From: Papaver somniferum
Taxonomy: Eukaryota; Streptophyta; Magnoliopsida; Ranunculales; Papaveraceae
Direction of reading: 5' to 3'
DNA: 64,000 bases
Assembly: GCF_003573695.1 (NCBI RefSeq)
Contig: NC_039359.1
Coordinates: 139,959,939-140,023,938 of the forward strand
Shown here: positions 1 to 64,000 of the stretch, piece after piece
How the letters are laid out: each line of letters begins with the position of its first letter
How positions within the stretch are numbered: the stretch's first letter is position 1
The notes under the pieces: model-generated
Seen by the model: the letters and a program-made list of their open reading frames with translations, nothing else
What the model was told of the DNA's origin: nothing
Database searches by the model: none
Made by a program: the position numbers and the translations under genes

Positions 1-2041
1 CATGCATTGAATTCACCCAAACGGGATCGCTAAGAGCTTCATCAATATTTCTTGGTTCTACTTGTGACAGATAACAACCAAAATTGCAAATATTTTGAAG
101 TTGTCCTCTAGTCTTAGCTGTAGAATCTCTTCCCCCAATAACACTGTTGGGATCATGATTCCTTTGAACCCAGAGGTGTCGTGGAGGGACACGTTCTTGT
201 TCGTCCGGAGTAGCCTGATCAATGCTCTTCTCCTCGTCACTAATATCAGGATCAACAACAGTTGGGATGACTTTAACTGATTCGGGTGTTTCTTTGACTT
301 TCTCAATTGTCTCAGTTGGAGGCAATTCAGCAGGAGGATTATCATAATGAAAATCACTAATAACATCAATGATAACATTAGCAGATTCCATCATGACCTG
401 GGTTCTGAGATTAAACACTCGAAAACCACGACTATCAGAAGCATAGCCAAGGAAGATACCTTCATCACTTTTGGTATCAAATTTCCCTCTCTGTTCTCGA
501 TCTTTTAAGATGTAGCACTTACTTCCGAACACTCTGAGATAATGCAAGTTGGGTTTTCTACCGTACCACAACTCATAAGGAGTGTTTGGGGTTTTAGACC
601 GTAGGTAGACACGGTTGATCAAATAACATGCTGTAAAGACAGCTTCTCCCCAAAACCTTAAAGGTAAGTTTTTGTTATGGAGCATTACCCTGGCCATTTC
701 CTGAATGTTTCTGTTTTTTCTTTCTGCAACTCCATTAGCTTGAGGAGTAATAGGTGGAGAATATTGTTGAATGATTCCCAGTTCATCACAAAATTCAAAC
801 ACTTTAGTGTCCTTGAATTCAGTTCCACGGTCGCTTCTAATTTTCTTTAGTTTGCGACCTTGTTCGTTCTGGATTCTTTTAACAATAATCTTGAATTCAT
901 CAAGGGTTTCATTATTATGAGATAGGAACGCAACCCAAGTGAATCTGGTGTAATCATCTACCATAACCAAAGCATACTTCTTACCAGCAACAATAGGTTG
1001 TTGAATCGGTCCGAAGAGATCCATATGAATTAAATCAAGTGGAGCTTTAGTGATAATATCTCGAGATGATTTATGGTGAACTTTAGTTTGTTTAACCTTT
1101 TGACATGCACCACATACACCTTCAATCTTTGCATTGATTTTGGGAACACCTCTAACAAGTTCTTTGTTAATGATCTTAGTTAGAAGACGATTGCTGAACT
1201 GAGTATCCAGAAGATAACAGTTGTTTTTACCACGAGTTCCCTGAAAAATTACTTTCCCAGTTTTGTCTACAATGTCACATCCATTTGCATTGAAGACCAC
1301 TCGATGTCCTTTGTCACAGATTTGACTAATAGAAAGAAGATTTGCAGTCATACCTTTTACGAATACTACATTATGGATTTCAGGTACGCCGGATAGTTTG
1401 ATCATTCCCTTCTTTCTTATGTAGCAACAACTCTCATCTCCAAATGTTACTGGTCCTCCTTCACAGTCGTTTGAAGAAACAAACCAAGTGAGATCACCTG
1501 TCATATGTCTGCTACATCCACTGTCAAGAAACCATTGAAAGGGTGATGTTGATTTTAAAGCAAAAGCTCCCATACTATTAGTACTTTCCTGTTTAGGGTT
1601 TCCTAATAGTTTTGTACGTCCTTTTAGAGAAGCACTAAGTTGTTTAGTTTTCGTGTGAAGATTACTTTCAACTTTTAGGCTTTTTTGAAAGGACATAGAA
1701 GTATGTTGAAAGTGATTGGAGGAATCACAAAACAAACATGGGCCAACACTTTTAAATTAGTCAGAGAAGTTCTGAGTCATATCAGTTTTCACAACACTTG
1801 AACATTGTTTATTATCCGACTTACGACTGTTCTTCAGATAGGAACAACTGGAGTTATTCAGATCCACCAAAGGAATTTTGATGGATTTCAAATCCTTAAG
1901 CATTGCAATTTCTTCTATGATATCAGAGTTGATCCGGATTTGTCCATCCAATTTTTTCTGGAGAATAACCAGTTTATTAGAACTTCTTCTACGATTGTTT
2001 TTTAATCCTGGGGAAGAGTTTCTAGAGACTTTACTGTCCAT
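1..2041 (-). pseudogene. Copia polyprotein (Gag remnant, protease, integrase), 3' part outside window
   Basis: This frame encodes the polyprotein that processes and integrates element A. It reads on the minus strand from an ATG at 2041, 53 bases after the PBS. About 94 lysine/serine-rich residues end at TAA (1757-1759), and the same frame then stays open to base 1. A retropepsin motif WFLDSGCSRHMTG lies near 1500-1535. A GAG-pre-integrase cysteine motif (CGACQ) lies near 1110. The integrase core shows DLFGP near 1015, SDRGTEF near 830 and ITPQANGVAERKNR near 740. The downstream fold (FWGEA, YELWYG, FGSKCY) fits the Sirevirus branch. No UBN2 Gag domain is visible between the ATG and the protease, which is unusual because Sireviruses normally have a large Gag. 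The single in-frame TAA may be a true lesion or mark a Gag/Pol boundary. Confidence 0.88.
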
Positions 2042-2093
2042 AGAGTCAGATCGCTACAAACACAGACTTGTAAGGTCTTGAACGTGTTTGCCT

Positions 2094-2105
2094 GCTCTGA
2101 TACCA
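2094..2105 (-). other. Primer-binding site of element A (initiator tRNA-Met type)
   Basis: Reading minus, TGGTATCAGAGC begins two bases after the LTR end. This is the common plant copia PBS, complementary to the 3' end of initiator tRNA-Met. It fixes the orientation of A and the LTR boundary. Confidence 0.95.
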
Positions 2106-2107
2106 AT

Positions 2108-3948
2108 TGAAAGAGTATGGGTACAACAACCACACCCAATATTTCTATTAGCAATTTGTATGGACAAACTCCAATATACTTTCAAGAGAATCAACTAGAC
2201 TCAATCTTAATAAAGTATATCAAAGAGTTATATCTCTCTTTCTTGATTCAATTCTTTCTCAAGCAAATAGAACTCTGCGAGTGTAATTGAATACAAGAGA
2301 AATCACTTGAATGGTACCAAAGACCAATGTTCAAGTATCAATCAATTTCAATCAACAACCAAAGGTCGGATTTCCAATTGATTGATTTTAACGCACAACC
2401 TGTGATATTTAAATTATATAACAAAATATAATCCGAAATAGAAATAACACATACACCAGAATTTTATTAACGAGGAAACCGCAAATGCAGAAAAACCCCG
2501 GGACCTAGTCCAGATTGAACACACACTGTATTAAGCCGCTACATACACTAGCCTACTACAAACTAACTTCAGTCTGGACTGTAGTTGAACCCCAATCAAT
2601 CTCACACTGATCCAAGGTACAGTATGCTCCTACGTCTCTGATCCCAGCAGGATACTACGCACATGATTCCCTTAGATGATCTCACCCACAACTAAGAGTT
2701 GCTACGACCCAAATTCGAATACTTTAATAAACAAATCTCTATCATACAGAAAAGTCTACAGGAGTAGATAAATCTGTCTCCCACAGAAATACCTACAAGT
2801 TTTTGTTCCGTCTTTTGATAAATCAAGGTGAACAGGAACCAATTGATAGACCAGACTTATATTCCCGAAGAACAGCCTAGTATTATCAATCACCTCACAA
2901 CAATCTTAATTGACGCGGCGAAAGAAGATATTGTGGAATCACAAACGATGAGACGAAGATGTTTGTGATTAATTTTCTATCTTGCCTATCGGAGATATAA
3001 ACCTCAAGACAATCGTTACGATTGTACTCAAAACGATAGAAGATGCAAGATCAGATCACACAACTACGAGAAAGTAGTATCGGTTTGGCTTCACAATCCC
3101 AACGAAGTCTTTAAGTCGTTAACCTGGTTTACAAGAAGAAACCTAAGGTTAAAGGAGAATCGACTCTAGCTAATACAACTAGTATCACATAGGAGGTGCG
3201 GGGATTAGGTTTCCCAGTTGCTAGAGTTATCCCTTATATAGTCTTTCAAATCAAGGTTTGCAATCAATGTTAGCTTGGTAACAAAGCATTCAATATTCAC
3301 CGTTATATGAAAACCTGATTAGATTCAAGTTAATATCTTTCAACCGTTGGATCGAAAACTTAGCTTGTTACACACAAATGAGATGCATGATTTTAGGTTT
3401 GTGTCCCGTACCCAAACATGTACATTTGTTGGTTCAATAATAGTTAACAAAATGGTTAGCAATATGAGCACTTTCATATCAACCATATTCTTCTTCACCA
3501 TAACTAGTTCAAATGACTCAAATGAACTAGTTAGAGAGTTGTTCAATTGCAAGGAAATATTATGTAACTACACAAGACACAATCGAAGCAAAAACGATTT
3601 GATTCACTCGAATCGGTTCATGAACTTTATAGCCACGGTTTGCATTTAGCATTCTTTAGTTAATATAAATAAGTTCACAAACAATCGTCTTTAGATATAA
3701 CCAACTTAAGTTCGCAGACTTAGTTCGCGGACTTAAGTTTCCGGAAGGAGTTCTCAAACTCCAACAGATATTCTCGGGTCGAAAACTTCCGCCAGTTCGC
3801 GGACTGGGTTCGCGGACTGAGTTCACGGCTCTTGTTCAGGTTCTCTTGATCAACAAAGTTCGCAAACTTCGGTTCCAAGAAAAAGGACTTATACATATAT
3901 GTGTTGCCACACAATGCCTTATATCCAACATTGGTTATATAATCTAAA
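2108..3948 (-). repeat. Element A 5' LTR, PBS-proximal part
   Basis: This block aligns in reverse with the LTRs of D, E and F: the same TATA region, the same 'GGTACCGTtCAAGT' type segment and the same end before the PBS. It stops at 3948, where G1 begins, and resumes at 16230. A TATATAAGG box on the minus strand lies at about 3233-3241. An array of TTCGCGAA-type near-palindromes lies at about 3700-3880. Several small open frames here are spurious LTR sequence. Confidence 0.9.
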
Positions 3949-6493: not shown

Positions 6494-6496
6494 TTT

Positions 6497-16229: not shown

Positions 16230-16756
16230 CTAAACTCTCATTTCAATCATTGAAACATTCTTAGAGGACGTTATATAGTTGTTATTCACAAACCATTTTT
16301 CGTCAAAGCAATTTTCAAAGTGATTGAAACATATCATGACTTTCGTCACTAGGTAAAGATGAACTTGGCCAAAGCGAAAGCTTACCAACATATATTTCGA
16401 GAAATAGATAGGCGAGATAAACTCGGCTGGAAATAGCAAATGTGTATAATCAAAGTGTATATAGCAAAACGACTTTTGTCTCAAGATAGGAGATAGAGTA
16501 GATAGACTTTTGAGTGATAGATAAGTTCAAGTCTCCACATACCTTTTAGTCGATGAAGTTCCACCAGTTCCTTGAGTAGTCCTTCGTCTTGTATGATGTT
16601 TGCCATGGAGTTCTTGAGCTCAGCTACACTTTCTATCCTAGTCCGAGACTTAGCTATAGTGGACTAGAAATCAAGACTTATAGTTTTGATCACTAACATT
16701 GACAAACATGCTTGAGATAGCAACGCATGCGAGTTCGACCGAGCAATGCTCTAACA
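16230..16756 (-). repeat. Element A 5' LTR, distal part
   Basis: This continues the A LTR after the G1 insertion. In minus orientation it starts TGTTAGAGC at 16756 and matches the first about 530 bp of the LTRs at 40219, 53049, 59342 and 62467. It includes the GGTCGA and TATCTCAAGCATG segments. Confidence 0.92.
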
Positions 16757-36550: not shown

Positions 36551-36601
36551 GGCAAACACGTTTAAGACCTCATAAGTCTGCGTTTGTAGCAATCTGACTC
36601 T

Positions 36602-40217: not shown

Positions 40218-40218
40218 T

Positions 40219-42518: not shown

Positions 42519-43452
42519 TGTTTTGGGGTAAAAACTGTTTCTGCTGGTTTTGGTAAATTTGGGTGTTTTGATGAGAAACGAATCTAAACCTTAAACAAAT
42601 GCACTACACGGGAGTACTTTAGATTCGAGATATCAATCTATACAATCCTGGCTTAAACCAAGAAATGGTCGTTCCAGTCTTGCTTCGGTCAAAAAGTGAA
42701 GGAGAATGGTTGGTCTTAGGGAGGGAAGCGAATAAGGTGTTGAGACCAGAATGGTTAATTCTGAAGGTGTGGCTATTTTATGACTTGTATCAGAATGTGG
42801 AATTGGCTTGCGGAATGTAAGCTATTAGTTCTTTTGTTTTTTTTTCTGGATACTTGTGTTGTTGTTAACCAAAACTGTTGTGGTTTAGTCGAAATAGGTA
42901 AAAATCTATTTATACAAGTCATAATTAAACGCACCATGATCTCGTAGGAAGTGGAGGTGGTTAAGTGATGGAGAAGTGGGGTAATGTGTAAATGCTAGGA
43001 ACCATGTCTCCACTATGAAGGGAAATGGGTTAGTTTACACCCACTACTTCTTGCCGCCACTAACTATCCGCTTTCCTGACACTTTATTATAATAGGCGTG
43101 TTGTATGTCGCACGCTGTAAACCGCCAGACCAATATCCTGATGAGCATCCCCCAATTTGTGACATGTTTGATGTCTTGAGTATTTTCGTGGAAAAAGTGC
43201 AGCAGATTGCTGAGTGGGTCTTGTGTGCAAAACCTGGCTATTCTGATTAATCCTACGCCAACTAAATGGCGGATAATCATGTGTGGCAAGTTAAATCATG
43301 AGACTTGCCATAAGAAAATGGCGTGTGACGCTATTAGTTTAGTCTTGGTTAACTCCGTGGAGAAGTTGGACGACTGAGATTGCAGTTTATGAGAGAAGGT
43401 GGTCGTTGATTATGGACACATCCTGTTGGCACCTGGTGACGGCATAGTGGCG

Positions 43453-48489: not shown

Positions 48490-50369
48490 TAACCAATGTA
48501 TTCTTTGAACCGAAGTTCTCGAACTTTGTTGATCAAGAAAACCGGAAGTGTGGCAAGTGCCAAGTCCGCGAACTCAGTTCGCGAACTGCCGAAGTTCTCA
48601 AACCCGAGAATTTCTGTTGAAGTTGACAAACTACTTGCGTGAGCCAAGTCCGCGAACCCAGTCCGCGAACCGGCGAATTTCTCAAACCCGAGAATTTCTG
48701 ATGGAGTTTGTAAACTCTGTCCGGTGTCTTAAGTCCGCGAACCTAGTCTGCGAACTTGAGAAGGTTATATATCTAAAGATGATCTCTGAACTTAATCTTA
48801 AAAGACTAAGGAATGCTTTTGAAAACTGTGGATATTAAAGTTCATGAACCGATTCTTGTGAATCAAATCATCTTTGTTTCAATTATGTCTTGTGTAGTTA
48901 CATAAGATTTCCTTGCAATTGAACAACTCTCTTAACTAGTTCATTTGAGTCATTTGAACTAGTTATGGTGAAGAAGAACATGGTTGGTATGAAATGCTCT
49001 TATGGTTAACCTTTTTGGTAAACCATTGTTGAACCAACAATGTACACGTTTGGGTGGGGTTTACAAACCTAGAAGCGTACAATCATTTGTGTATGACAAG
49101 CTAAGTTTTCGATCTAGCGGTTGAGAAATATTAGCTTGAATCTAAATCAGGTTTTCATCTAATGGTGGATATTGATTGCTTTGTAACTAAGGAAAACCCC
49201 TGATTTGTAAGACTATATGAGGGGACATCTAGCAACTCTGCAAAACTAATACCCACACCTTACGTGTGCTACTAGTTTGCGTGCTAGAGTCGGTTCTCCT
49301 TTAACCTTTGGTTATCTTCTTCTAAAACCAGGTTAACGACTTGAAGACTTCATTGGGATTGTGAAGCCAGACCGATACTAATTTTATCGTAGTTGTGTGA
49401 TCTGATCTTGCATCTTCTATCATAATAGTACAATCATATTGATTGGATAGAGATTGTTTGATTTCTCCGATATGCAAGATATAAAAAGTAATCACAAACA
49501 CCTTCGTCTCATTGTTTGTGATTCCACGACATTTTGTTTCGTTACCATACGATTAAGATTGTTGTGATGTGATTGATTAATCTTGGCCGTTTTTCGGGAT
49601 TATAAGACCGGATTATCAATTGGTTCCTGTTCACCTTCATTATTATCAAAAGACAGAACAAAAACTTTAGGGTTTTTCTGTGGGAGACAGATTGATCCTT
49701 TGATAGACTTGTCTGTGTGAGACAGATTTTTTTTATTGTTAAAACCTGCGATTTTGGGTCGTAGCAACTCTTACTTGTGGGTGAGATCAGCTAAGGGAAT
49801 CAAGTGCGCAGTATCCTGCTGGGATCAGAGGCGTAAGAAGTACAACTATACCTTGGATCAGTGGGAGACTGATTGGGGTTCAACTATAGTCCAGTCCGAA
49901 GTTAGCTTGGAGTAGGCTAGTGTCTGTAGCGTCTTAATACAATGTGTATTCAATCTGTACTAGGTCACGGGGTTTTTCTGCATTTGCGGTTTCTCGTTAA
50001 CAAAATTTCTGGTGTCTGTTATTTCAGTTTCCGCATTATATTGTTTATCTTTATAATTGAAATAATACAGGTTGTGCGTATATATCATCAATTGGTATAA
50101 TCCAACCTTTGGTTGTTTGATTGTCATTGATTGATCCTTGGACATTGGTCTTTGGTACCGTCCAAGTTATTCCTTATGTTTGATTATGACTCGCTGATTT
50201 CTATTATCTTGAGTAAATCAAAACAAGAGAGAGATATTAACTCCTTGAGATACTTTTACCTAGATTGAGTCTGACTGTCTAGTTGATTCTCTAAAAAGTA
50301 TTTTGGATTTAGTCCATACATATTGCTAAGCGAAATATTGGGTGGTGTTGTTAGACCCCCGCTTTTTCA
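48490..50369 (+). repeat. Element E 5' LTR, 5'-truncated
   Basis: It begins at AACCAATGTATTC, which lies about 530 bp into the intact LTR (compare 62999), and ends CGCTTTTTCA. A palindrome array of the TCCGCGAACT type lies at about 48520-48760. The TATA position reads GACTATATGAGG, a degraded box. Confidence 0.9.
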
Positions 50370-50371
50370 AT

Positions 50372-50383
50372 TGGTATCAGAGC
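50372..50383 (+). other. Element E primer-binding site
   Basis: TGGTATCAGAGC lies two bases after the LTR end. Confidence 0.95.
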
Positions 50384-50439
50384 AGGCAAACACCTTAACC
50401 TAATAAGTTTGTGTTTGTTCGTTCCTTAAAAATTGTCCC

Positions 50440-51000
50440 ATGGGAAATTTCTTTGGAAAACTTGCTCTTGGAATCTGTAGAGCGCGCCATATTTCCTTGA
50501 AGATTGTTCAAAGATTATTATGGCTAAAACCTATGGGTTCTCATGATAATCTTACTTCATCTAAAAGGGAAGATTTAGATGTTAAGAATCAATCAGAAGG
50601 AAAAAATAAAAAGAAGGAAAGGTTGAGAAAACGCTCGACACGCTCAAGGATATGGAACCTCACTAGATTAACTCTTGATCTCTTTCAGGAATACTATCGT
50701 GGTGGATCAATTGATAAAGATCTATTCATAGCTTTCGAAGGCGTTTTTAAATTCTTGGAAAAACTTAAATCTGTGAAGTCTAAGAATCATTCCGAAAAGG
50801 GTTCTGTATGTGTTGAATCTGTTAATACCATGCAACCCAGAAATCGGAAGTATCCTCCTTCTATCCAGAACAAACGAAGGATAGAAATCTCTAACTGCCC
50901 TGACTATCATCATTACTTTGATTATACTACAGGGACTGTTCACACATATCAACCAGAAATGTCGCATGAGAATTCCTCTGCGCATTATGCCTCTTGGTAA
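50440..51000 (+). CDS. Element E first ORF, unknown basic protein
   Basis: An intact 186-codon frame that starts 56 bases after the PBS, the position where A, D and F start their Gag frames. The protein is strongly basic in residues 40-75 (Lys/Arg clusters such as KNKKKERLRKRS). It has a hydrophobic helix-like part around residues 75-110 (LTLDLFQEYYRGGSIDKDLF) and a Tyr/His-rich tail. I do not recognise a family, and no zinc knuckle or protease motif is present. It may be a diverged nucleic-acid-binding Gag substitute. That is a guess from charge and position. Confidence 0.45.
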   Translation: MGNFFGKLALGICRARHISLKIVQRLLWLKPMGSHDNLTSSKREDLDVKNQSEGKNKKKERLRKRSTRSRIWNLTRLTLDLFQEYYRGGSIDKDLFIAFEGVFKFLEKLKSVKSKNHSEKGSVCVESVNTMQPRNRKYPPSIQNKRRIEISNCPDYHHYFDYTTGTVHTYQPEMSHENSSAHYASW

Positions 51001-51412
51001 CAATGATGGAAATTCCCCATTTGTATATATCTTGGAATGGGAAAAGAAAATGGTTTGAGTTGTGTACAGTTTTGTTATTGTGATTAAATATCAATTTTAG
51101 CTTTCTATTGCATCCGTTGTCATTCACCTGTGTGTTGTCACGAAGTGCATAACCTTTAATGTGCAATTGGCTAATAAAATCCTAGCTTTCTTATATAGGT
51201 CGCGGTTCATGAACGGGTCCAAGCCCAAGTGTGGTCTTTATAAAGAAGAAGTTCGTGCACCCTAGTCTTCTTCTTTATTCATCTGCGCACGTGATTCTAG
51301 GGTTTTGTGTGTTTCCACCCTTGAAGCTTCATTGGAAAAATTAAAAGAAAGGGTGTTCAAGATTCAATCCAAGTAAGTAATTTTCTCTTAATCCTCTCAT
51401 ATTTCTTGTCCC
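51001..51412 (+). promoter_or_regulatory. Possible internal promoter and leader of the E accessory gene
   Basis: No frame lies here. CTTTATAAAGAAG (51237-51249) is a good TATA box, followed by TTCGTGCACC. A GTAAGT donor-like site (AAGTAAGTAATTT) lies near 51371, about 40 bases before the ATG at 51413. The layout looks like a gene with its own promoter. Confidence 0.4.
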
Positions 51413-52449
51413 ATGATGAATTCTAGAAGCACTAAAAGGAGTTCTAAAAATCCAAAAACCTGTAGCTTGAATTCTTCTTGTGACCAAAACTCTCTTAGAA
51501 TTAGGTTTGTGGATGATTCTTGTGTTAGAGTGTTTGATAAGATTGCTTCAAAAGGTTTCATACTAGAAAAGAAATTGGATTTTTCTAGTGGGCATGAAGA
51601 GGATTTGGTATGCTTTAAAAAATTCAAGCTTGGAAATATCTTTGATGGTCTTGGTCAAGGATTTGATTCTCTTACAAGGATTTTCTATGCTAATATTCAT
51701 GATGTTGATTACAACAAGATGGAATTCAAATCCATGATTGGTAGAGAAAGGTTTCTTGTTGATAGAGAATTAATTTCAAGGATTACCAAAATCCCGTTGG
51801 GGAATTACAGCTTCCTAAACCAAGTGATGAACGTCCATCTTGTGATGATATCTCGGTTGGAATTTGTGGCAAGAAGGTTGCATGGAGTTAAGGAAAGTTC
51901 CCTACTAATGATCTTAGTATTGCCTTGATGGCTTTTGGAAAACTTGGTATCCCCAATCTTTGTCCCTCCACAATTGAAAATTCTTGGTGGAGTCACGAGT
52001 TTGCGGAATTGGTCTATTTCCTTGTTTCGGGTATTTCAAGTCTCGATATTTGTGGTTTCATTATCTCTCAAATGATTTCGATGACTTCACCAGTCAAGAT
52101 GTTGGGTTACCCTTGCTTGATTAGTCAAATTTACCTTGATCATGGGTGTGATTCAATTGGAAACTCTCTTGGGTTTCCCAAACCGGTTCGTCCATGTACC
52201 TTTAGGCGCATAAGGGAAAATGCTTGCAAGCGACAAAGAATCGCTTCTCTTGATTTTAGTGACCCTACTACCATGAGCCTTCTTCAAAAAATTCATAAAG
52301 GTGTGTGTAAAGTTGATTCAAGAGTGAAGTGTGTTCAAGAACAATTGTCTTTGGTTGCAACGAAGTTTCCCGAGCTCAAGAAAGAATTGAACATGATTAA
52401 AGCATCTTGGAGTGTCTCCGATGAGGAAGAAGATGCGCTTATTGCCTAG
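51413..52449 (+). pseudogene. Transposase_32 (PF20167)-like accessory gene in element E, frameshifted
   Basis: Two frames (51413-51928 and 51925-52449) form one gene with a frameshift near 51800-51920. The first half carries RIFYANIHDVDYNKMEFKSM and ITKIPLG, which match the 'FYAN...V.G..V' start of the putative plant transposon domain PF20167. The second half carries SWWSHEFAELVYFLVSGIS, GFIISQMI and YPCLISQIYLDHG, matching its conserved C-terminal part. The end is an acidic helix (SVSDEEEDALIA). This domain is common in plant retroelement accessory ORFs, and its biochemical role is unknown. The gene is in sense orientation here, unlike those in B and C. Confidence 0.7.
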
Positions 52450-53048
52450 TATGTCTTCTTATTGGCTTAGTTGGAAGAATAACCAGTGCTTTGAATAGCG
52501 ATGATTCTAACTACACATTGCTATTATTTTCATCTTCTTGTTTTTAGGTTTTTTGGTTTAAAATTCTAAAAATATTTGGAGGATGATGTTTTTGCAGTAT
52601 TTAATCTTTATGATTTGTTATATTTCAATTTGATATGGGATATTGGTGTTTACGTCCGTGAACTATGTTTTCCCATATTTTGTCAAAAGTAAAGTCGTTC
52701 ATGATCGGTATTCATTTATTGGTTTAAGAATAAATAAACTTTTGACAAATACAATAGTTAAGCCTATATTGTCAATCTTTGACGGAAGATAGGTTAAAAT
52801 CTTTTGTATCCAAGGATTATTGCTATTGTATATGCTTGTGCAAAAGAATGAATCCTTGTGTATTCCACGGTATTGATCTTCATTGATCCATCCTTTTTGT
52901 ATTACCGTGAGGCTCTGTAATGTGTCTTATGTTGAGCACGATACGACAAAGTTGATTATTTTTTATTAGCCTTGTTGGTTGTTCCGTAAGATACTTTATG
53001 TTGAGCATATTAGAACTAAATTAATCATCTTGTTGGTTATTTAGTTAT
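52450..53048 (+). other. Element E 3' non-coding region, left part
   Basis: Similar to 38900-39300 in D and 57700-58185 in F. It contains 'TTATGTTGAGCA'-type repeats. It ends GGTTATTTAGTTAT, cut by the LTR of F. The last five bases, GTTAT (53044-53048), are the left TSD of F. Confidence 0.8.
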
Positions 53049-55315
53049 TGTTAGAGCATAGCTCGGTCGACCTCGCATGCGTTGCTATCTCAAGCATGTT
53101 TGTCAATGTTAGTGATCAAAACTACGAGTCTTGATTTCTAGTCTACATAGCCAAGTCTCGGACTAGGATAGAAAAGTGTAGTTGAGCTCAAGGACTTCAT
53201 GGAGATTCATCATACAACGACGAATATCTACTCAAGGAATCGTGTAACTTCATCAACAAAAAGATATGTGGAGACTTGAACTTATCTATCACTCAAAAGT
53301 CTATCTCTTCTATCTCCTACTTCTTATGAGACAAAAGTCGTATGCTATATAAACTGGATCATACACATTTGATATTTCGAGCCGAGTATATCTCTCCTAT
53401 CTATATCTCGAAATCATGTGTTGGTAAAGCGTTTCACTTTGATCGGGTTTATCTTCACCTAATGACGAAAGTCAAAATGTTTCAATCAATTTGAAAATCG
53501 CTTTGACGAGAAATAGTGTAACAACTATATAACGTCCTCTAAAAATGTTTCAATGGATGGAATGAGAGTTTAGGTATATATAACCAATGATGGATATAAG
53601 CATTCTGTGGAAACACATATGTGCATAAGTCCTATTCCTTAATCCGAAGTTTGCGAACTTTGTTGATTAAGAGAAACTGGAGGAATTGGCTTTGCCAAGT
53701 CCGCGAACTCAGTTTGCGAACTCAGTCCGCGAACTGACGGAAGTTTTCTGCTGGGATTTTCCAAAAACTCGTTTGCGTGTTTAGTCCGCGAACTGGAGGA
53801 AGTCTCCTTGCCGAGATTTTCTGCTGAGTTTGGAAAACTCTGTCGGTTGTCTTAAGTCCGCGAACTTGTTTGCGTACTTGAGTGGGTTATGATCTAAAGA
53901 TGTTCTTTGAACATGAAACTTAAATTACTAAGGAATGCAGTATGCAAACCGTGGCTATAAAGTTCATGAGCCGATTCAATCGAATCGAATCATCTTTATT
54001 TCAATTGTGTCTTGTGTAGTTACATAATATCTCATAGCAATTGAACAACTCTCTAACTAGTTCATTTGAGTCAATTGAACTAGTTATGGTGAAGAAGAAC
54101 AAGGTTAATATGAAATGCTCATATGGTTGACCTTTTGGGTTACTATGTTGAACTAACATACACGTACACGTTTGGGCACGGTTTTCACCAACCCAGTAAA
54201 CGTATATCTCAAGTGTGTGTGACAAGCTAAGTTTTCGATCTAACGGTTGAGAAATATTAGATTGAATCTGAATCAGGGTTTCATCTAACGGTGAATATTG
54301 ATTGCTTTGTAACTAAGGTAAAACCCTGATTTGAAGACTATATATAGGAGACATCTAGCATTGGGAAAAACTAATCCCTACACGTCTGTGTGATACTAGT
54401 GCGCTCGCTAGAGTCGATTCTCCTCGAACCTTTGGTTTTCTTCTCTAAAACCAGGTTAACGACTTAAAGACTTCATTGGGATTGCGAAGCCAGACCGATA
54501 CTACTTTTGACGTAGTTGTGTGATCTGATCTTGCATCTTCTATCGTACGAGTACAATCTTTGATTGGCTTGAGATCGTGAGAGTTCTCCGATAGGAAAGA
54601 TAAAGAAGTCACAAACATCTTCGTCTCACTGTTTGTGATTCCTCGACGTCCTCTTGTGTATTCAAGTAAGACTGTTGAGAGGTGATTGATTAATCTAGGC
54701 TGTTCTTCGGGAATATAAGACCGGATTATCAATTGATTCCTGTTCACCTTGATTTCATATCTTAAGATGGGACAAAAACCTAGGGTTTTTCTGTGGGAGA
54801 CAGATTTATCCTTTGATAGACTTTTTTTTGTGAGACAGATTTGTTTATTATCAAGTCTGCGATTTTGGGTTGCAGCAACTCTTGGTTGTGGGTGAGATCA
54901 ACTAAGGGAATCAAGTGCGCAGTATCCTGCTGGGATCAATTAATTGGAAATAATTCTGGTGTCTGTGTTATTTCTATTTCCGCATTATATTTGTTTATAT
55001 AATTGAAATAATACTGGTTGTGCGTTTGAATCAATTAATTGGAAATCCTACCTTTGGTTATTGATTGATATTGATTGATCCTTGGACATTGGTCTTTGGT
55101 ACCGTCCAAGTTATTCCTTGTGTTTGAATATAGACTCGCTGATTTCTATTAGCTTGAGTGAATCAAAACAAGAGAGAGATATTAACTCCTTGAGATACTT
55201 TTATCTAGATTGAGTCTGACTGTCTAGTTGATTCTCTAGTAAGTATTTCGGAGTTAGTCCATACAGATTTCTAATCGAAATATTGGGTGGTGTTGTTAGA
55301 CCCCCGCTTTTTCAA
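53049..55315 (+). repeat. Element F 5' LTR
   Basis: 2267 bp, TGTTAGAGC...TTTTTCA. Compared with E it has a deletion near 54935, where GCTGGGATCA joins ATTAATTGGAAAT. The palindrome-rich array (AGTCCGCGAACT, AGTTTGCGAACT) lies at about 53645-53880. Confidence 0.95.
54339..54346 (+). promoter_or_regulatory. TATA box of the F LTR
   Basis: GACTATATATAGGAG, at the conserved LTR position. The same box occurs in the 3' LTR at about 60647-60654. Confidence 0.65.
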
Positions 55316-55317
55316 TT

Positions 55318-55329
55318 GGTATCAGAGAA
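55318..55329 (+). other. Element F primer-binding site, one mismatch
   Basis: TGGTATCAGAGA lies two bases after the LTR. The last base differs from the usual TGGTATCAGAGC. Confidence 0.9.
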
Positions 55330-55378
55330 GGTAAACACGTTAAAGACCTTATAAGTCTGTGTTTGTAACGATCTGATT

Positions 55379-56867
55379 ATGGACGAGTCTATCTCTAATA
55401 ACGTACCAGTTCAGAAATTACCAGATGATTCTAAAAGCTTGGATTCACCTGAGAGAACTGTCACATCTAAGTCAATATCCAAACATTCTCTTGATGTAAA
55501 AACTGTTGATTGGGAAACTCTCCTAGAAGAACAGTTGGATGAACTTTCTGATGAAGGTGATTCAGATATTGATAGAGATGTTGATGAGGAAGTCTTAGAG
55601 TATGTTAAGTTTTTGGATTCGTGGAATATGAAGAAGATTACAACTTCTCATGTCACACCTCTTCTGACTCCTCTCTGTCGAGAAAACAAGAAATTGAGAA
55701 GATGTTACGAAGGTGTTTATTTTTCGAATCGTTCTACCGAATCGATCCTCAAGGATTCTGAGGAAAACCTACGTATAAAGTCACTTGAATGTGATAATCT
55801 TTATAAAAAGTACTTTTTGTTGGAAGAGAAACTTGAAGAATCTGAAGCAAGGTTTAACTCCCAACAAACAAGTTTTGACGATAGAGAAAGCGCTTATCTC
55901 ACTCGAGAAAAGCGCCTTGAGGCTGATTTAGCTGATGCTCTTGATAAAATCAAGATGTTGGAAGATGACTTGAAAAAGTTCAATACTAGTTCAAGCAAAT
56001 TAACCACTATGATAGGAGCAAGTAAAAATCATCGTGATACACGAGGATTGGGCTATAAGGGAATAGATGCTCCAAGTACTAGCAAAGAGGTAAAATTTGT
56101 CAAGTCTAGTGATTCTTCTCAACAAAAGGTTTCCACTGATGGAAAAAGTGAAATACCTTCTCCGGCAGTTAAGGTTCAAAAGAGCAAAGTTTATCAACCT
56201 CCAAAGTTAGCACACATGGATCGAGGTAAGAACATTCTTATGTTTGCCACTATTGCGTAAATAAAGGTCACCTGGAAAGGAGATGTTGTTTCCGTATAAG
56301 GAATGAGAAACTTCATGATGTTCTTGTTTGGGAATCACAAGAAGTTGTGAAACCAAGATCATACGTTAAGACTGATCCTCTTACGTTACAAGTTGTAATT
56401 GTCCAACCTTTAAGAAAAGGAATCAGTGCTATGATAGACCTCGATTTGCCGATAAACGTCGTACGAATCCTTTTCATAATCGTAATGGTTATCAAAAGGA
56501 TAACTTCGTAAAGACGAAGACAAGATCCGATGCTCCCAATTGGAGAAAGACTAACTTGCAAAAGAATAGTCAATCCAATTCTCTTCCAAGAATTCTAGAA
56601 GAGAGTGATGGGAAGAAGGTTCCGACCATTCCTAAACGCACTCAGAAGTGGATACCTAAGAAAGACAATGATGTTTTGAGTGTGAAAAGGAATGATCTTC
56701 CTGAAAACTCCATGACTATGGAAAAGGAAGTATCCATGATGTTGGAACTTAAAAAGTTTTTTGGAAAAATTGAATTGGATGTGAAAGGTTCTAAAAGTGA
56801 TCTCTTTCATGATAATCCAAAGGTCACTTGTGGTGAGCAATACTTTGTTCACCCCAACGCAACTTGA
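55379..56867 (+). pseudogene. Element F Gag C-terminal region (frameshifted)
   Basis: A 293-codon frame from the ATG at 55379. Its parts in order are a Ser/Asp-rich head, an acidic stretch (QLDELSDEGDSDIDRDVDEE), and a long coiled coil (residues about 120-215). LKKFNTSSSKLTTMIG and GLGYKG follow, as in Sirevirus Gag. A frameshift near 56225 puts the zinc knuckle in another frame. There CHYCVNKGHLERRC (about 56245-56290) keeps a complete C-X2-C-X4-H-X4-C. A third block (56556-56867) holds KRTQKWIPKKDN, like the W-x-P-K motif after the knuckle. The UBN2 N-terminal domain is missing and nothing follows in place of protease. It is homologous to the D gag. Confidence 0.83.
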
Positions 56868-59340
56868 TTGTGTTGGAAGTGCACCCTCACCAAGGAATGC
56901 GCTGCTTTGTATGCGATGAGGGAATCACAAGAATTGGGGCACACAGATTATGTTCGGTAAGGCGGTAGAATTTGATTGGATTCATCTAAAAAGGTATGCC
57001 TATAAACATGAGCAAGATTTGTACTTTTATTTGCTTAGAATACTTATAATAATCTTTCTTATCGTTCATTTCTACCTAACTTGATCCGTGTTTAAGGTTC
57101 TTAAATGTTTAGGTTTGAAAATAATAGTTCGGGATGTCTGGACTACATGGTACACATACCAAGTATGCATAACAACATTTAAAATCAAAATCCAGGGGTT
57201 TAAGTTCGCAAACCCGTATGCATACTTGATGTCGATATTCGGAAAACTTGTTTTGGCCGTAACTTCTTCTTCCAAACTCGGGTTTACCTCATTCTTTTTG
57301 CATTCTCTTCCTTATTGAATTCACTTCAAAATGGAGATGAGAATTGTTGAATTTGGATGAGTTAATATTGGTCTTTGTCCTGTCTCTTGTTTTTTATTGT
57401 TTGCTTCGTTTCGTTGCACTTGTTCTATTCTCTTGGACTTGGGAACTGGGATTCTCGGAGAAATCCTATTCTAAGCTATTTTTTGGCTGTTACAAGAGTG
57501 ATGTTGGTGAATCACAAAGAAGGAAGTTCGAGAATGGGTAGTAGTTCATATTGCTATATATTCTTGAGTGTTCACAATCATGGTGCATAGTCGTCAATGA
57601 CTTTGTATGTTCTTCTTTGTTAAGGATATCTTTGTATACGCTTTTGGTAACCACTCTTGGTATAAATCCGTGCGAAAAAGATTGATTCTACCTTCTAAGG
57701 GTAAAGATTGTTATTGCAGTATTAATCTTTATGATTTTGTGATATTGCAATTGTTTATGGGATATGTATTGTTTGTGTCTGTGAACTTGAAGGTCCCATA
57801 TGTTGTCAAAAGTAAAGTCGTTCATAAATTGGTATTCGTATTGATGAAAGGACGAATGGCTTTTGACAAATACAAAAGTTATACCTGCAGTCATTTATTT
57901 GATGGAAAATAGGGTAAAATCTTTTGTGTAACAAGGATAAAGTCTATTATGTGATTATGCATATAGTGATGGAAAGATAGAATAGATCCTTGTATGTATT
58001 CCACGGTATTGATCTTCATTTATCCTTTCTTTTTTATTAACGTGAAGGCTCCATTGTGTGTCTTATGTTGAGCACGATACAACTAAGTCTATTATTCTTA
58101 TTGGCTTTGTTAGTTGTTCCATAAGATGATATATGTGGAGCATTATGAACTAAATTAATCATCTTGGTTGGTTATTTAGTTATTTGCTCCGAAAGTCTTC
58201 TTTTATCGAGCAAAACTTTTGACAAATAAATTGATTACCTTCGTGATTAGTTTGGTTATTTGTATTCCAATTAGATTAATTATGGCTTCTCTTGTAATTA
58301 GTCTAGTTGAGTTTTCATATATTCCACAAGTTCTTGTGTTGAGTATATGAACGGCTATACTAACTATGTTCTATTGGTTGATGTAGTCGTATATTCCGTA
58401 AGGTGTTCCTTATGTTGAGTATGTGAATGATTAAGTTAGTCATCTCCGTATGATTACCTTAGTAGTAGCTCCGTAAGTTTATTTATGTTGAGCACAATCA
58501 ATTAAATTTATCACTTTTGTGGTTTGATTTAGTTGCGTATTCCAATTAAATTAATCATGCTTGTGATTAATTTGATTGAGTTTTGGATATAGAAAATCAT
58601 TTTCCTATGGTTTTTGGTGTCCAATCAAAAATCCTTTTTTTCTTTAGAAATTAAGGTCGCTATATTTGTTTTCTCGGGAATGACTTCAAATGGGGGAGAG
58701 TTATTTTGAACTTGTGCTTAATTGTAATATCTTGCGGGGTGTGCGGCTGTGGAATTTTATAGGGGTTATCTTGTATCTTAAAACTCCTTGATGAATGCAT
58801 TTAGCTTCGGCTTTATGATTGCATCTAAATTAAGTTGGTATGTATTTGTTCTTTTAGTCTATGAAACGTCTCTTCTCGGAAATTTCATTAGGAACCCGTT
58901 CTTGTACCTTTGCCAATTTTATTGACAAAAAGGGGAGAATTAATGTGTAGTTCTACTACATATACATATGGTTTTCGGATCATTGTGTAAGGGGGAGTGG
59001 TTTCTATGTGATATGGAGTATTGACTAAGGGGGAGTGATACATATCACCGTAGTATTATTGTTAAAGTTGTGATGCAATTGGACTTTGATGTTACATAAT
59101 AATACTATGTCACTGTATAATAATGATCGAGAATCTCTATTTCTCTCATTGTTATAGCTACGGATCTTTAACAACGGTGATGCTAAACTTACAACCTTTT
59201 GGATCATTGGAGTACTTGGAAGGACGAAGATTTCAGGGAACGTTGAAGATTAGACTATGGAATAGGAGCCACTAAAGTTTATCTTTTTTATATTCCATAT
59301 GTATTAATAGTTTTGTTACTAAAATTGACAAAGGGGGAGA
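56868..59340 (+). other. Element F 3' non-coding region, degenerate repeats and multiple PPTs
   Basis: Small frames here are not conserved in E or D. A degenerate unit of about 75-80 bp (TTCCGTAAG...TTATGTTGAGYA...AATTAATCAT) recurs about six times from 58010 to 58590. G-rich purine tracts lie at 58688-58700, 58924-58939, 58989-59000, 59027-59037 and 59330-59340; the last one abuts the LTR. One LTR-like palindrome, TTCGCAAACCCGTATGCATA, lies near 57205. Confidence 0.75.
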
Positions 59341-59341
59341 T

Positions 59342-61502
59342 TGTTAGAGCTATGCTCGGTCGACCTCGCATGCGTTGCTATCTCAAGCATGTTTGTCAAT
59401 GTTAGTGATCAAAACTATGAGTCTTGGTTTCTAGTCTGCATAGATAAGTCTCGTACTAGGATAGAAAAGTGTAGTTGAGATCAACGACTTCATGGCGATT
59501 CATCATACAACGACGAAGATTTAATCAAGGAACCGTAGAACTTCATCAACAAAAAGGTATGTGGAGAATTGAACTTATTTATCACTCAAAAGTCTATCTC
59601 TTCTATCTCCTACTTCTTATGAGACAAAAGTCGTATGCTATATAGACTGGATCATACACATTTGATATTTCGAGCCGAGTATATCTCGCCTATTTATATC
59701 TCGAAATCATGTGTTGGTAAAGCTTTTCGGGTTTATCTTCACCTAATGACGAAAGTCATAATGTTTCAATCACTTGAAAATCGCTTTGACGAGAAATAAT
59801 GTAACAACTATATAACGTCCTCTAAGAATGTTTCAATGGTTGGAATGAGGGTTTAGGTCTATATAACCAATGATGGATATAAGCATTGTGTGGAAACACA
59901 TATGTGCATAAGTCCTATTCCTTAATACGAAGTTTGCGAACTTTGTTGATTAAGAGAAATCGGAGGAATTGGCTTTGCCAAGTCCGCGAACTCAATTTGC
60001 GAACTCAGTCCGCGAACTGAAGGAAGTTCTCTTGCCGAGAATTTCTGCTGGGATTTTCCAAAAACACGTTTGCCTGTTTAGTCCACGAACTCAGTCCGCG
60101 AACTGGCGGAAGTCTCCTTGCCGAGATTTTCTGCTGAGTTTGGAAAACTCTGCCGGTTGTCTTAAGTCCGCGAACTTGTTTGCGTACTTGAATGGGTTAT
60201 GATCTAAAGATGTGCTCTGAACATGAAACTTAAATTACTAAGGAATGCAATATGCAAACCGTGGCTATAAAGTTCATGAGCCGATTCAATCGAATCGAAT
60301 CATCTTTGTTTCAATTGTGTCTTGTGTAGTTACATAAGATCTCATAGCAATTGAACAACTCTCTAACTAGTTCATTTGAGTCAATTGAACTAGTTATGGT
60401 GAAGAAGAATAAGGTTAATATGAAATGCTCATATGGTTGCCCTTTTGGGTTACTATGTTGAACCAACATACACGTACACGTTTGGGCACGGTTTTCACAA
60501 ACCCAGTAAACGTATATCTCAAGTGTGTGTGATAAGCTAAGTTTTCGATCTAACGGTTGAGAAATATTAACTTGAATCTGAATCAGGTTTGCATCTAACG
60601 GTGAATATTGATTGCTTTGTAACTAAGAAAAAACCCTGATTTGAAGACTATATATAGGAGACATGTAGCATTGGGAGAAACTAATCCCCACACGTCTTTG
60701 TGATACTAGTGCGCTCGCTAGAGTCGATTCTCCTCTAACCTTTGGTTTTCTTATCTAAAACCAGGTTAACGACTTAAAGACTTCATTGGGATTGTGAAGC
60801 CAGACCGATACTACTTTTATCGTAGTTGTGTGATCTGATCTTGCATCTTCTATCGTACGAGTACAATCTTTGATTGGCTTGAGAACGTGAGAGTTTTCCG
60901 ATAGGCAAGATAAAGAAGTCACAAACATCTTCGTCTCACTGTTTGTGATTCCTCGACGTCCTCTTGTGTATTCAAGTAAGATTGTTGAGAGGTGATTGAT
61001 TAATCTAGGATGTTCTTCGGGAATATAAGACCGGATTATCAATTGGTTCCTGTTCACCTTGATTTCAAGGAACAAAAACCTAGGGTTTTTCTGTGGGAGA
61101 CAGATTTATCCTTTGATAAAATTTTATGTGTGAAACAGATTTGTTTATTATCAAGTCTGCGATTTTGGGTTGCAGCAACTCTTGGTTGTGAGTGAGATCA
61201 GCTAAGTCTGCGAATTGTTTATTATCAATTGGAAATTCGACCTTTGGTTGTTGATTTATATTGATTGATCCTTGGACATTGGTCTTTGGTACCGTCCAAG
61301 TTATTCCTTGTGTTTGATTATAGACTCGCTGATTTCTATTAGCTTGAGTGAATCAAAATAAGAGACATATATTAACTCCTTGAGATACTTATCTAGATTG
61401 AGTCTGATTCTCTAGTTGATTCTCTAGTAAGTATTTCGGAGTTAGTCCATACAGATTGCTAATCGAAATATTGGGTGGTGTTGTTAGACCTCCGTTTTTT
61501 CA
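59342..61502 (+). repeat. Element F 3' LTR
   Basis: 2161 bp, TGTTAGAGC...TTTTTTCA. It has its own deletion near 61205, different from that of the 5' LTR. The palindrome array is at about 59930-60190. TSD GTTAT follows at 61503. Confidence 0.95.
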
Positions 61503-62465
61503 GTTATTACTCCACAAGTTTCTCTTGTGTTGAGTATATGAACGATTAAGCCAATCACTCTCTTGTATGGTTAACTTAGTCGCTGCTCCGTAAGTTTACT
61601 TATATTGAGCAAAATGAATTAAATTGATCACTTTTATGTTTATTTTATTATGTATTCCGATTAAAATAATCATGGGTTTACTTATGATTAATTTGATTGA
61701 GTTTTGGATATAAAAATTATTCTCATGGTTTTGGTGTCCAATAAAAATCATTCTTTTCTCTTGAAATTAAGGTCGCTCGTTGTTGTTCTTTCGGGAATGA
61801 CATCAAATGGGGGAGAGTTCTTTTGAACTTTTGCTTAATGGTCATATCTTGAGGGGTGTGCGGCTGTGGAATTTTAGAGGGGTTATCTTGTATCTTTAAA
61901 CTCCTTGATGAATGTTGTTAGATTCGGCTATATGATTGCATATAAATAAGATAATGTGTGTTTCTTTCTCTCAGTCATGAAATATTTCTTACGGAAATTT
62001 CATTATGAACTCGTTCTTGTACCTTTGCCAATTTTATTGACAAAAAGGGGGATAATTAATATGTAGTTCACACTACAAATACATATGGTTTTCGGATCAT
62101 TGTGTAAGGGGGAGTGGTTTTCATGTGAGATGGAGTATTGACTAAGGGGGAGTTATACATATCACCATAGTATTATTGTTGAAGTTGTGATACAATTGAG
62201 CTTTGACACTGTGTAATAATACTATGACACTGTATAACAATGATCAAGACCGATGCTTTCTCATTTTTATAGCTACGGATCTTCAACAACGATGGTGCTA
62301 AACTTACAACCTTTGGGATCATTAGAGTACTTGGAAGTGACGAAGATTTCGAGGAATGTTGAAGATTAGACATGTGGAATAGGAGCTACTAAAGTTTCAT
62401 TATCTTTTTTTTTTGTATTCCATATGTATTGATAGTTTTGTCACTAAAATTGACAAAGGGGGAGA
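61503..62465 (+). other. Element E 3' non-coding region, right part, with multiple PPTs
   Basis: This continues 52450-53048 after the F insertion. It starts GTTATTACTCCACAAG, homologous to F near 58315. G-rich tracts lie near 61807, 62045, 62106 and 62140, and the true PPT (ACAAAGGGGGAGA) is at 62453-62465. Confidence 0.85.
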
Positions 62466-62466
62466 T

Positions 62467-64000
62467 TGTTAGAGCACTGCTCGGTCGACTCGCATGCATT
62501 GCTATCTCAAGCATGTCTGTCAATGTTAGTGATCAAAATTATAAATCTTGATTTCTAGTCTCTTATAGCTAAGTCTCGGACTAGGATAGTAAGTGTAGTT
62601 GAGCTCAAGGACTTCATGGCGATTTATCATACAAGTAGAAGGACTACTCAAGGAACCGGTGGAACTTCTCGACAAAAAGGTATGTCGAGACTTGAACTTA
62701 TCTATCACTCAAAAGTCTATCTATTCTATCTCCTACTCTTTGAGACAAAAGTCGTATGCTATACATATAGACTAGATCATACACATTTGGTATTTCGAGC
62801 CGAGTATACCTCGCCTATCTATATCTCGAAATATGTGTTCGTAAGCTTTTCGCTTCGACCAAGTTTATCTTTACCTAGTGACGAAAGTCATGAATGTTTC
62901 AAACACTTTGGAAATTGCTTTGACGAGAAATGGTGTAACAACTGTATAACATCCTCTAAGAATGTTTCAATGATTGGAATGAGAGTTTAGATTACATAAC
63001 CAATGTATTCCTTGAACCGAAGTTCTCGAACTTTGTTGATCAAGAGAACCGGAAGTGTGGGAAGTGCCAAGTACGCGAACACAGTCCGCGAAATGCCGAA
63101 GTTCTCAAACCCGAGAATTTCTGCTGGAGTTGACAAACTACTTGCGTGAGCCAAGTCCGCGAACCCAGTCCGCGAATCGACGAAGTTCTCAAACCTGAGA
63201 ATTTCTGCTGGAGTTTGTAAACTCTGTCTGGTGTCTTAAGTCTGCGAACCTAGTCTACGAACTTGAGAAGGTTATATATCTAAAGATGATCTCTGAACTT
63301 AATCTTAAAAGACTAAGAAATTCTTTTGCAAACCGTGGCTATTAAAGTTCATGAACCGATTCTTGTGATTCAAATCATCTTTGGTTCAATTGTGTCTTGT
63401 GTAGTTACATAAGATTTCCTTGCAATTGAACAACTCTCTTAACTAGTTCATTTGAGTCATTTGAACTAGTTATGGTGAAGAAGAACATGGTTGGTATGAA
63501 ATGCTCTTATGGTTAACCTTTTTGGTAAACTATTGTTGAACCAACAATGTACATGTTTGGGTGCGGTTTACAAACCTAGAAGCGTACAGTCATTTGTGTA
63601 TGAGAAGCTAAGTTTTCGATCTAACGGTTGAGAAATATTAGCTTGAATCTAAATCAGGTTTTCATCTAACGGTGTATATTGATTGCTTTGTAACTAAGGC
63701 AAAACCCTTATTTGAAAGACTATAGAAGGGGACATCTAGCAACTCTGCAAAACTAATCCCCACACATTACATGTGCTACTAGTTTGCGTGCTAGAGTCGG
63801 TTCTCCTTTAACCTTTGGTTTTCTTCTTCTAAAACCAGGTTAACAACTTGATGACTTCATTGGGATTGTGAAGCCAGACCGATACTAATTTTATCGTAGT
63901 TGTGTGATCTGATCTTGCATCTTCTATCGTAATAGTACAATCATATTGATTGGCTAGAGATTGTTTGATTTCTCCGATAGGCAAGATATAAAAAGTAATC
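62467..64000 (+). repeat. Element E 3' LTR, runs off the window
   Basis: It starts TGTTAGAGCACTGCTCGG and matches the E 5' LTR closely from 62999 onward, for example CCGAAGTTCTCGAACTTTG. The palindrome array is at about 63010-63265. The window ends before the PBS-side end. Confidence 0.95.

What the first reader, a model, noticed from the sequence alone, without database searches (positions are those of the whole stretch)
1..64000. One copia LTR family with four different, partly complementary interiors
A, D, E and F share LTR, PBS position, start-codon position, 3' non-coding region and PPT. Their cargo differs. A has protease-integrase in one long open frame but almost no Gag. D and F have only the Gag C-terminal half (coiled coil, GLGY, CCHC) and no pol. 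E has neither and carries a basic ORF plus a Transposase_32-like gene. This fits a cooperative set in which A supplies enzymes and others supply Gag or accessory functions. That is inference. The alternative is independent deletions from a full Sirevirus.
Basis: partly seen in the sequence, partly recalled or inferred. Interest (0 to 1): 0.8.

Follow-up and report, generated by a model that had tools for sequence, protein, structure and literature searches.

The report
Gag and enzymes on separate retrotransposons
A family of plant jumping elements shares the same ends and control regions, but different copies carry different genes - some the copying enzymes, others coat-like or unknown proteins - so they may depend on one another to move, a more divided arrangement than the known helper-and-dependent pairs.

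Summary
A, D, E and F are real LTR elements with one chassis (Sirevirus junctions, leader, 3' linker) and different interiors. Corrections: F is nested inside E (TSD GTTAT); A also has RT-RNaseH, beyond the window edge; D's LTR is only 70-77% like the others. Random decay does not explain A and F types. F type: 134 scored places in the genome, 72 without a stop; three fetched intact copies have the same pol-less interior and a 496-aa ORF. A type: 75 scored copies; in four fetched 5' ends leader, ~165-codon mini-Gag region and protease follow directly, without capsid Gag; longest frame 1,196 aa. Sixteen interiors examined in 284 kb form six cassette types; two (e7, e9) carry canonical copia Gag without pol, only A has pol. 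Purifying selection shows in 16 of 26 overlapping comparisons (0.2-0.5 in deep ones), not in recent ones. LTR similarity follows cassette type poorly (nearest LTR is another type in 6 of 7 elements tested, 6 of 12 when sister copies are kept), so cargo has moved between chassis. Best reading: a divided, trans-complementing Sirevirus group. Mobilisation in trans is inferred; a complete gag-pol helper is not excluded; E's copy number and the full census did not complete.

The parts
1..2111 (-). Element A interior, part inside the window: PBS 2094-2105, leader, start codon at 2041, mini-Gag, protease, integrase (RT-RNaseH and 3'LTR continue upstream of base 1, in L009)
2112..3948 (-). Element A 5'LTR, PBS-proximal part (split by a Ty3-type insertion at 3949-16224)
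16225..16756 (-). Element A 5'LTR, outer part; starts TGTTAGAGC at 16756; TSD CATTC at 16757-16761
34603..36534 (+). Element D 5'LTR (5'-truncated)
36535..40218 (+). Element D interior: PBS 36538-36549, Gag-C-type remnant (36602-37786 matches P0001 1-419), second ORF, linker, PPT; 157-base N run at about 39711-39867
40219..42519 (+). Element D 3'LTR (3'-truncated)
48490..50367 (+). Element E 5'LTR (first ~530 bp missing)
50368..53048 (+). Element E interior, 5' part: PBS 50372-50383, ORF1 and ORF2, start of linker
50440..51000 (+). E ORF1, 186-aa basic protein beginning MGNFFGK; 60% identical relative P0003
51413..52449 (+). E ORF2 in two frames (51413-51928, 51925-52449); second piece weakly matches Transposase_32 (20.6 bits, cut-off 45)
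53049..55313 (+). Element F 5'LTR; TSD GTTAT at 53044-53048
55314..59341 (+). Element F interior: PBS 55317-55328, Gag-C-type ORF, linker with 3 PPT octamers
55379..56260 (+). F Gag-C-type ORF, 293 aa (coiled coil, RGLGY); similarity continues in other frames through the CCHC to 56864; 496 aa in intact copies
59342..61503 (+). Element F 3'LTR; TSD GTTAT at 61504-61508
61504..62466 (+). Element E interior, 3' part: linker with multiple PPTs, terminal AGGGGGAG-AT at 62457-62466
62467..64000 (+). Element E 3'LTR (continues to 64877 in L010)

Best explanation
A divided Sirevirus-type Copia group. The types share the cis signals used in retrotransposition (LTR ends, primer site, PPT/attachment site, leader, linker), but roughly between the start codon and the end of a second ORF they carry different gene cassettes. 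A-type copies carry a capsid-less mini-Gag of about 165 codons followed in one frame by protease-integrase-RT-RNaseH. Other types lack pol and carry canonical copia Gag (e7, e9), Gag C-terminal-like proteins with a zinc knuckle (D/F; e1/e8/e10), or unassigned ORFs (E; e4/e5). Most likely the A-type enzymes mobilise all of them in shared particles built with Gag from other copies, and recombination, presumably template switching between co-packaged RNAs, has moved cassettes between chassis. Shown: architecture, copy number and open frames of A and F types, selection in deep comparisons, individual cases of unlike cargo on closely related chassis. Inferred: trans-mobilisation, shared particles, which Gag is used, and the route of recombination.
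For: F type: 134 scored places (F included) of 18,343 first-look candidates, 72 of 134 without a stop in the matched stretch, 13 of 134 with a 504-codon frame and no stop (counted by eye); 3 of 3 fetched copies, chosen because intact, have LTR-interior-LTR, an interior colinear with F, no pol and a 496-aa ORF. A type: 75 scored of 47,817 first-look candidates, apart from A itself 87-93% identical in the integrase match, longest open frame 1,196 aa; 4 of 4 fetched 5' ends (4 of 75) are colinear with A from PBS into protease over 656-660 nt, 3 of 4 open throughout. 1 of 16 examined interiors in 284 kb has A-like pol. LTR-to-LTR insertions with 5-bp TSDs, read by eye, for four cassette types: A, F, e1, e9. 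Ka/Ks upper bound below 1 in 16 of 26 overlapping comparisons of 60 codons or more; 0.21-0.22 for three ORFs of e7/e9, which align over one pol-less layout. Unlike cargo on close chassis: F (II), e4 (V), e7 (VI) LTR K 0.10-0.13, against F/D (both II) about 0.35 and e7/e9 (both VI) 0.27-0.28. Nearest LTR of another type in 6 of 7 elements that had a same-type candidate, nearest linker in 7 of 11. Homology between types ends at interior nt 51-114; it resumes within 120 nt of the assigned second-ORF stop in 37 of 69 ordered pairs (my count; misses mostly involve A, F, D2, e8).
Against: No mobilisation was observed. Ka/Ks is not clearly below 1 in 10 of 26 comparisons (e4/e5 0.88; several at Ks 0.2-0.36; D/D2 1.29 and 5.0, the latter with a lower bound of 1.22), nor among three F-type copies (0.67-0.94). 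Selection could partly predate loss of pol. With sister copies kept (D2, e5, e6, e8) the nearest LTR is of another type in only 6 of 12, and 924 of 5,000 label shuffles cluster as well by type (4,236 and 4,197 of 5,000 without them). The e7-e8 link may be DNA-level recombination. Only 4 of 75 A-type 5' ends were read, 3 of them picked for long frames. The LTR+PBS census, the E search and the canonical-Gag search did not complete. The mini-Gag knuckle is complete in 3 of 5 copies seen (by eye).
Confidence: 0.52

Rival explanations
1. All of these, A included, are non-autonomous passengers of a complete gag-pol Sirevirus with a different LTR elsewhere in the genome.
For: A different-LTR Sirevirus-like element with canonical Gag pieces lies at window coordinates 250839-263309, so related families are present; one search had 47,817 first-look candidates and scored 75.
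Against: At least three A-type copies show no stop in protease and integrase matches and frames of 1,102-1,196 aa, which a pure passenger would not be expected to keep; the other-LTR element also shows no A-like pol match.
Confidence: 0.27
2. Independent deletions from full-length Sirevirus copies: A, D, E, F are decay products.
For: All four window copies are broken; recent pairs show no selection.
Against: Same layout and open frames in copies on other contigs; purifying selection in deep pol-less comparisons; no full gag-pol parent among the 16 interiors examined.
Confidence: 0.07
3. A type is autonomous as it is: the mini-Gag suffices for particles, and the other types are parasites of A with no useful products.
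For: A-type frames open to 1,196 aa; mini-Gag has a zinc knuckle in 3 of 5 copies.
Against: No room for a capsid domain between start codon and protease in the 5 copies seen; other types' proteins are under purifying selection in deep comparisons.
Confidence: 0.1
4. Chassis-cargo mixing arose by DNA-level recombination or gene conversion between genomic copies, not by co-packaging (compatible with the best explanation except for its recombination step).
For: LTR-sharing tandem interiors (e4-e5-e6) and an element with unlike LTRs and no TSD (e8, K 0.31) show that DNA-level exchange occurs.
Against: A, F, e1, e9 are insertions with TSDs and matching LTR pairs, so each combination has itself retrotransposed.
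Confidence: 0.35

Closest known systems
RLG_Cereba / RLG_Quinta pair of wheat (PMC11302176; passages read)
   Same: Shared LTR termini and PBS; one member has the enzymes, the other a Gag and an unknown domain; Gag-coding parts recombined between lineages with matching flanks.
   Different: Cereba is described as contributing all proteins required; here the pol donor lacks capsid Gag in the 5 copies seen and five pol-less cassette types share the chassis. Copia here; RLG means Gypsy (recalled).
RLG_Sabrina / RLG_WHAM semi-autonomous elements of wheat (named in passages of PMC11302176; their own paper not read)
   Same: Sabrina sometimes encodes Gag without RT/IN.
   Different: Not described in those passages with several unrelated cassettes or a Gag-poor pol donor.
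TR-GAG elements (definition read in passages of PMC6022998; original paper recalled)
   Same: LTR element with Gag (or Gag + protease) only: e7/e9 come closest.
   Different: In D/F, e1/e10, e4/e5 and E no copia Gag domain was recognised.
BARE-2 (named in passages of PMC6022998; details recalled)
   Same: A pol-bearing Copia element thought to rely on a relative's Gag, as A would.
   Different: Recalled: BARE-2 lost the Gag start codon; A type has a short, different Gag region in frame with pol.
Sireviruses (PMC2829016; abstract and sections 6, 7, 9, 12, 13 read)
   Same: PBS junction, attachment sites, repeated PPT octamer, long LTR and linker.
   Different: No palindromic CGG-CCG repeat found; genes split over element types.

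Membership tests
Sirevirus | 5'LTR/internal junction CA|ATTGG + TATCAGAGC | tested here: met
   A and E exact; D has TA for CA; F has TATCAGAGA (compared with PMC2829016 section 12)
Sirevirus | Terminal PPT AGGGGGAG 10 bp before 3'LTR, AT/TG attachment site | tested here: met
   E, F exact; D AGGGGGAT, A ATGGGGAG (for the definition)
Sirevirus | Several identical PPT octamers in the linker | tested here: met
   exact octamers A 2, D 1, E 3, F 3; D alone would not meet it
Sirevirus | Palindromic repeated motif with CGG-CCG core in LTR (reported in 13 of the paper's 21 tabulated elements, so not in every Sirevirus) | tested here: not met
   among 5-base-arm palindromes in four LTRs, one contains CCG and none has the core
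Sirevirus | C-rich signal near LTR 3' end | tested here: inconclusive
   C-rich stretch about 10-15 bp from the LTR end, by eye only
Sirevirus | RT/integrase phylogeny within the genus | not tested
   Copia RVT_2, rve, Pol_BBD domains found; no tree made
TR-GAG | LTR element with Gag (or Gag+AP) domain only | tested here: inconclusive
   e9 ORF: Retrotran_gag_2 E 3.3e-5, 23.9 bits, cut-off 27; F-type: no Gag domain, weak zf-CCHC only
Autonomous/non-autonomous pair (Cereba-Quinta criteria) | Same PBS and LTR termini in both partners | tested here: met
   (near-identical, single-base departures in D and F)
Autonomous/non-autonomous pair (Cereba-Quinta criteria) | One partner carries all proteins | tested here: not met
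   A and 4 of 4 fetched A-type 5' ends have no capsid Gag; 71 of 75 scored copies not read there
Transposase_32 (PF20167), E ORF2 | Score above curated cut-off | tested here: not met
   20.6 bits against 45

The most novel reading that the evidence does not exclude
A multipartite LTR retrotransposon: no copy of this LTR family holds a complete gene set; capsid Gag, mini-Gag-Pol, other Gag-C/RNA-binding proteins and unassigned proteins sit on at least six element types that are packaged together and reassort cassettes between the start codon and the last stop, like the segments of a segmented virus.
Probability: 0.28. Interest if true: 0.85.

Novelty: new variant of a known kind. Interest (0 to 1): 0.64.

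Why it matters
Helper-and-dependent LTR pairs are known, but in the described wheat pair one partner is complete. Here the enzyme donor itself lacks capsid Gag in the five copies examined, pol-less cassettes show purifying selection in deep comparisons, and unlike cargo sits on closely related LTRs. If confirmed, it gives a testable case of mutual dependence among selfish elements, and a natural experiment on whether retrotransposon genes can be spread over separate elements and reassort. It would also mean that some elements filed as decayed could be working parts of such sets.

Tried and rejected
Independent decay: rejected for A and F types. Tandem arrangement of E and F: rejected, F is nested in E. 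One LTR family at 80%: D fails (the 80% rule is recalled). D/F as capsid donors: no copia Gag domain found; a structure prediction of the 496-aa protein had mean pLDDT 39.8, only a long helix (128-213) being partly of fair confidence, so it settles nothing. Recent-pair Ka/Ks does not differ from 1. Plasmid collection: no match. A protein search with A protease-integrase gave best 47% identity and could not see full gag-pol proteins because of its length limit. Literature searches; no title or abstract start in those listings describes this family, but most subscription journals are not held. Two odds were lowered after a recount showed that the LTR-versus-cargo statistic weakens when sister copies are kept (best explanation 0.55 to 0.52, novel case 0.30 to 0.28); the helper rival was raised a little for the same reason.
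Full report
The window lies at G000:C2:139959939-140023938 of a 2.7-Gb genome of an unnamed organism. A self-comparison, ten kilobases on either side and junction reading give four related Copia elements. A is on the minus strand. Its 5'LTR is interrupted by a Ty3-type element (3949-16224, LTRs 95% alike), its RT-RNaseH and 3'LTR lie before window base 1, and both ends carry the target duplication CATTC. D is truncated at both outer LTR ends. E lost about 530 bp of its 5'LTR and is inserted in a repeat that resumes after its 3'LTR. F is complete and sits inside E with the duplication GTTAT. Within-pair LTR distances are 0.04 (A), 0.08 (D), 0.06 (E), 0.05 (F); between elements they are 0.16-0.20 among A, E, F and 0.28-0.39 for D. 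The types therefore separated before these insertions.

Membership signals follow the Sirevirus description in PMC2829016 (abstract and sections 6, 7, 9, 12, 13 read): CA|ATTGG-TATCAGAGC, AGGGGGAG-AT|TG, and several PPT octamers in the linker, with single-base departures in some elements. The palindromic LTR repeat was not found. No pol phylogeny was made.

Because genome search was mostly unavailable, I read 200 kb downstream of the window, which with window and flanks makes 284 kb. The family is dense there. I examined 16 interiors, not every fragment: I, mini-Gag plus pol (A); II, Gag-C-type (D, D2, F, e3, e11); III, E; IV, zinc-knuckle ORF plus coiled-coil ORF (e1, e8, e10, e12); V, a 379-aa ORF plus a 143-aa coiled-coil ORF (e4, e5, and the remnant e6, placed by its leader); VI, canonical copia Gag with two knuckle-like regions plus a basic second ORF, no pol (e7, e9). 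A-like pol is in 1 of 16; other copia pol matches in the 284 kb are 24-41% identical to A and lie outside these interiors. Short knuckle-region similarities join types I, II, IV and VI (E-values 0.002-0.04, so weak), and second ORFs of e4 and e8, and of D2 and e4, resemble each other (3e-6 and 0.003). An older element of another LTR family at 250839-263309 also shows canonical Gag pieces and no A-like pol.

Copy number and frames. With F's 293 residues the genome search scored 134 of 18,343 first-look candidates; apart from F itself they are 90-97% identical, 72 of 134 have no stop in the match and 13 of 134 show a 504-codon frame without a stop (my count by eye). A protein record of 496 aa, 95% identical to F's ORF, was found independently. 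Three fetched copies (of the 13; chosen because intact) have LTR pairs, a colinear pol-less interior and a 496-aa ORF. With A's protease-integrase, 75 of 47,817 candidates were scored; apart from A itself they are 87-93% identical in the integrase match, and the longest open frame is 1,196 aa, about what start codon to RNaseH needs without a capsid Gag (about 1,170-1,180 codons by my arithmetic). I could fetch the 5' ends of 4 of 75: all 4 match A from PBS into protease over 656-660 nt without added Gag, 3 of 4 open throughout, the fourth with a stop in the mini-Gag region. Three were picked for long frames, so they show that the more intact form is capsid-less, not that every copy is.

Selection. 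Of 26 overlapping Ka/Ks comparisons of at least 60 codons (codons with stops skipped), 16 have an upper bootstrap bound below 1: e7/e9 0.21, 0.22, 0.21 for three ORFs; type IV 0.20-0.54; F/D and F/D2 0.52 and 0.45. Ten do not: recent or moderately diverged pairs, and one (the 123-aa ORF of D2 against D, 5.0) has its lower bound above 1. Three intact F-type copies give 0.67-0.94 with intervals including 1. No E comparison reached 60 codons. e7 and e9 align from PBS through both ORFs into the linker without pol, so their common ancestor was probably already pol-less while selection acted. For D/F the alignable shared part is the Gag part and the linker.

Chassis and cargo are partly decoupled. 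F (II), e4/e5 (V) and e7 (VI) have LTRs only 0.10-0.13 apart though their cargos do not align, while F and D (both II) are 0.35-0.39 apart and e7 and e9 (both VI) 0.27-0.28; A's LTR is nearest to e10 (IV). In one search the nearest LTR was of another type in 9 of 10 elements, but three of the ten had no same-type partner in the test. Among those that had one it is 6 of 7, and for linkers 7 of 11, or 6 of 10 without the probably recombinant e8. I had left out D2, e5, e6, e8, e11 and e12 from the LTR test as sister, shared, partial, chimeric or lacking a clear LTR; with D2, e5, e6 and e8 put back it is 6 of 12, and 924 of 5,000 label shuffles are as clustered by type, against 4,236 or 4,197 of 5,000 without them. 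So recent sister copies keep their pairing, as they must, while older members of a type often sit on unrelated chassis. Between types, 5' homology ends at interior nt 51-114, around the start codon (66-108 where one was called), and 3' homology resumes within 120 nt of the assigned second-ORF stop in 37 of 69 ordered pairs (my count; misses mostly involve A, F, D2 and e8, where it starts further down the linker). e8 has unlike LTRs (0.31) and no target duplication, and e4-e5-e6 share LTRs in tandem, so DNA-level recombination also happens. But A, F, e1 and e9 are insertions with duplications, so four different combinations have been transposed as units.

Mechanism. Shown: one cis-signal set; separate pol and Gag-like cassettes in high copy for two types; selection in deep comparisons; cases of unlike cargo on close chassis. 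Inferred: A-type enzymes act on all; capsid comes from type VI or an unseen helper; template switching in shared particles makes the mosaics. The closest published case I saw is Cereba-Quinta of wheat (PMC11302176, passages read), where one partner is described as supplying all proteins and the other adds Gag variants; here the enzyme donor lacks capsid Gag in the copies seen and the partners are many. I rate co-operation more likely than not but unproved, and a complete gag-pol helper with another LTR as the chief rival.

Noticed in passing
window 16754-19471 + 28443-30900 and 42517-48490 (continuing after 64879 in L010): Two copies (about 85-96% alike in pieces) of a long repeat that encodes a Plant Mobile Domain protein (PF10536, E 7.7e-33); A's target site adjoins one, and E is inserted in the other, with 20 nt of the repeat and ~530 nt of E's LTR missing at the junction.
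   Followed up: partly
window 50440-51000: E ORF1 starts MGNFFGK and its 60% relative P0003 has an internal MGNSLGK at residue 11; this resembles an N-myristoylation signal (pattern recalled, not tested), which might suggest a membrane-directed, matrix-like or captured host protein.
   Followed up: partly
window 19472-28442: Element with ~470-bp LTRs (96% alike) and a minus-strand series of ORFs, one with a retroviral-type protease-like stretch (by eye), inserted in the Plant Mobile Domain repeat.
   Followed up: no
window coordinates 91525-109717 (L012-L014): On the minus strand, neighbouring interiors (e4, e5, e6) share LTRs in tandem.
   Followed up: partly
window coordinates 191614-200322 (L022-L023): e8 is bounded by two unlike LTRs (K 0.31) without target duplication, so probably a DNA-level recombinant.
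   Followed up: partly
window coordinates 248492-269746 (L028-L030): Older Sirevirus-like element of another LTR family with canonical Gag pieces and no A-like pol, itself interrupted by e9.
   Followed up: partly
window 1-2111, integrase region of A: In most of the 75 scored A-type copies the protease and integrase matches are listed apart with about 40 nucleotides between them, so the window copy of A appears to lack a short piece in the pre-integrase region.
   Followed up: no
window 39711-39867: Run of 157 N in D's linker, probably an assembly gap or a withheld stretch.
   Followed up: no
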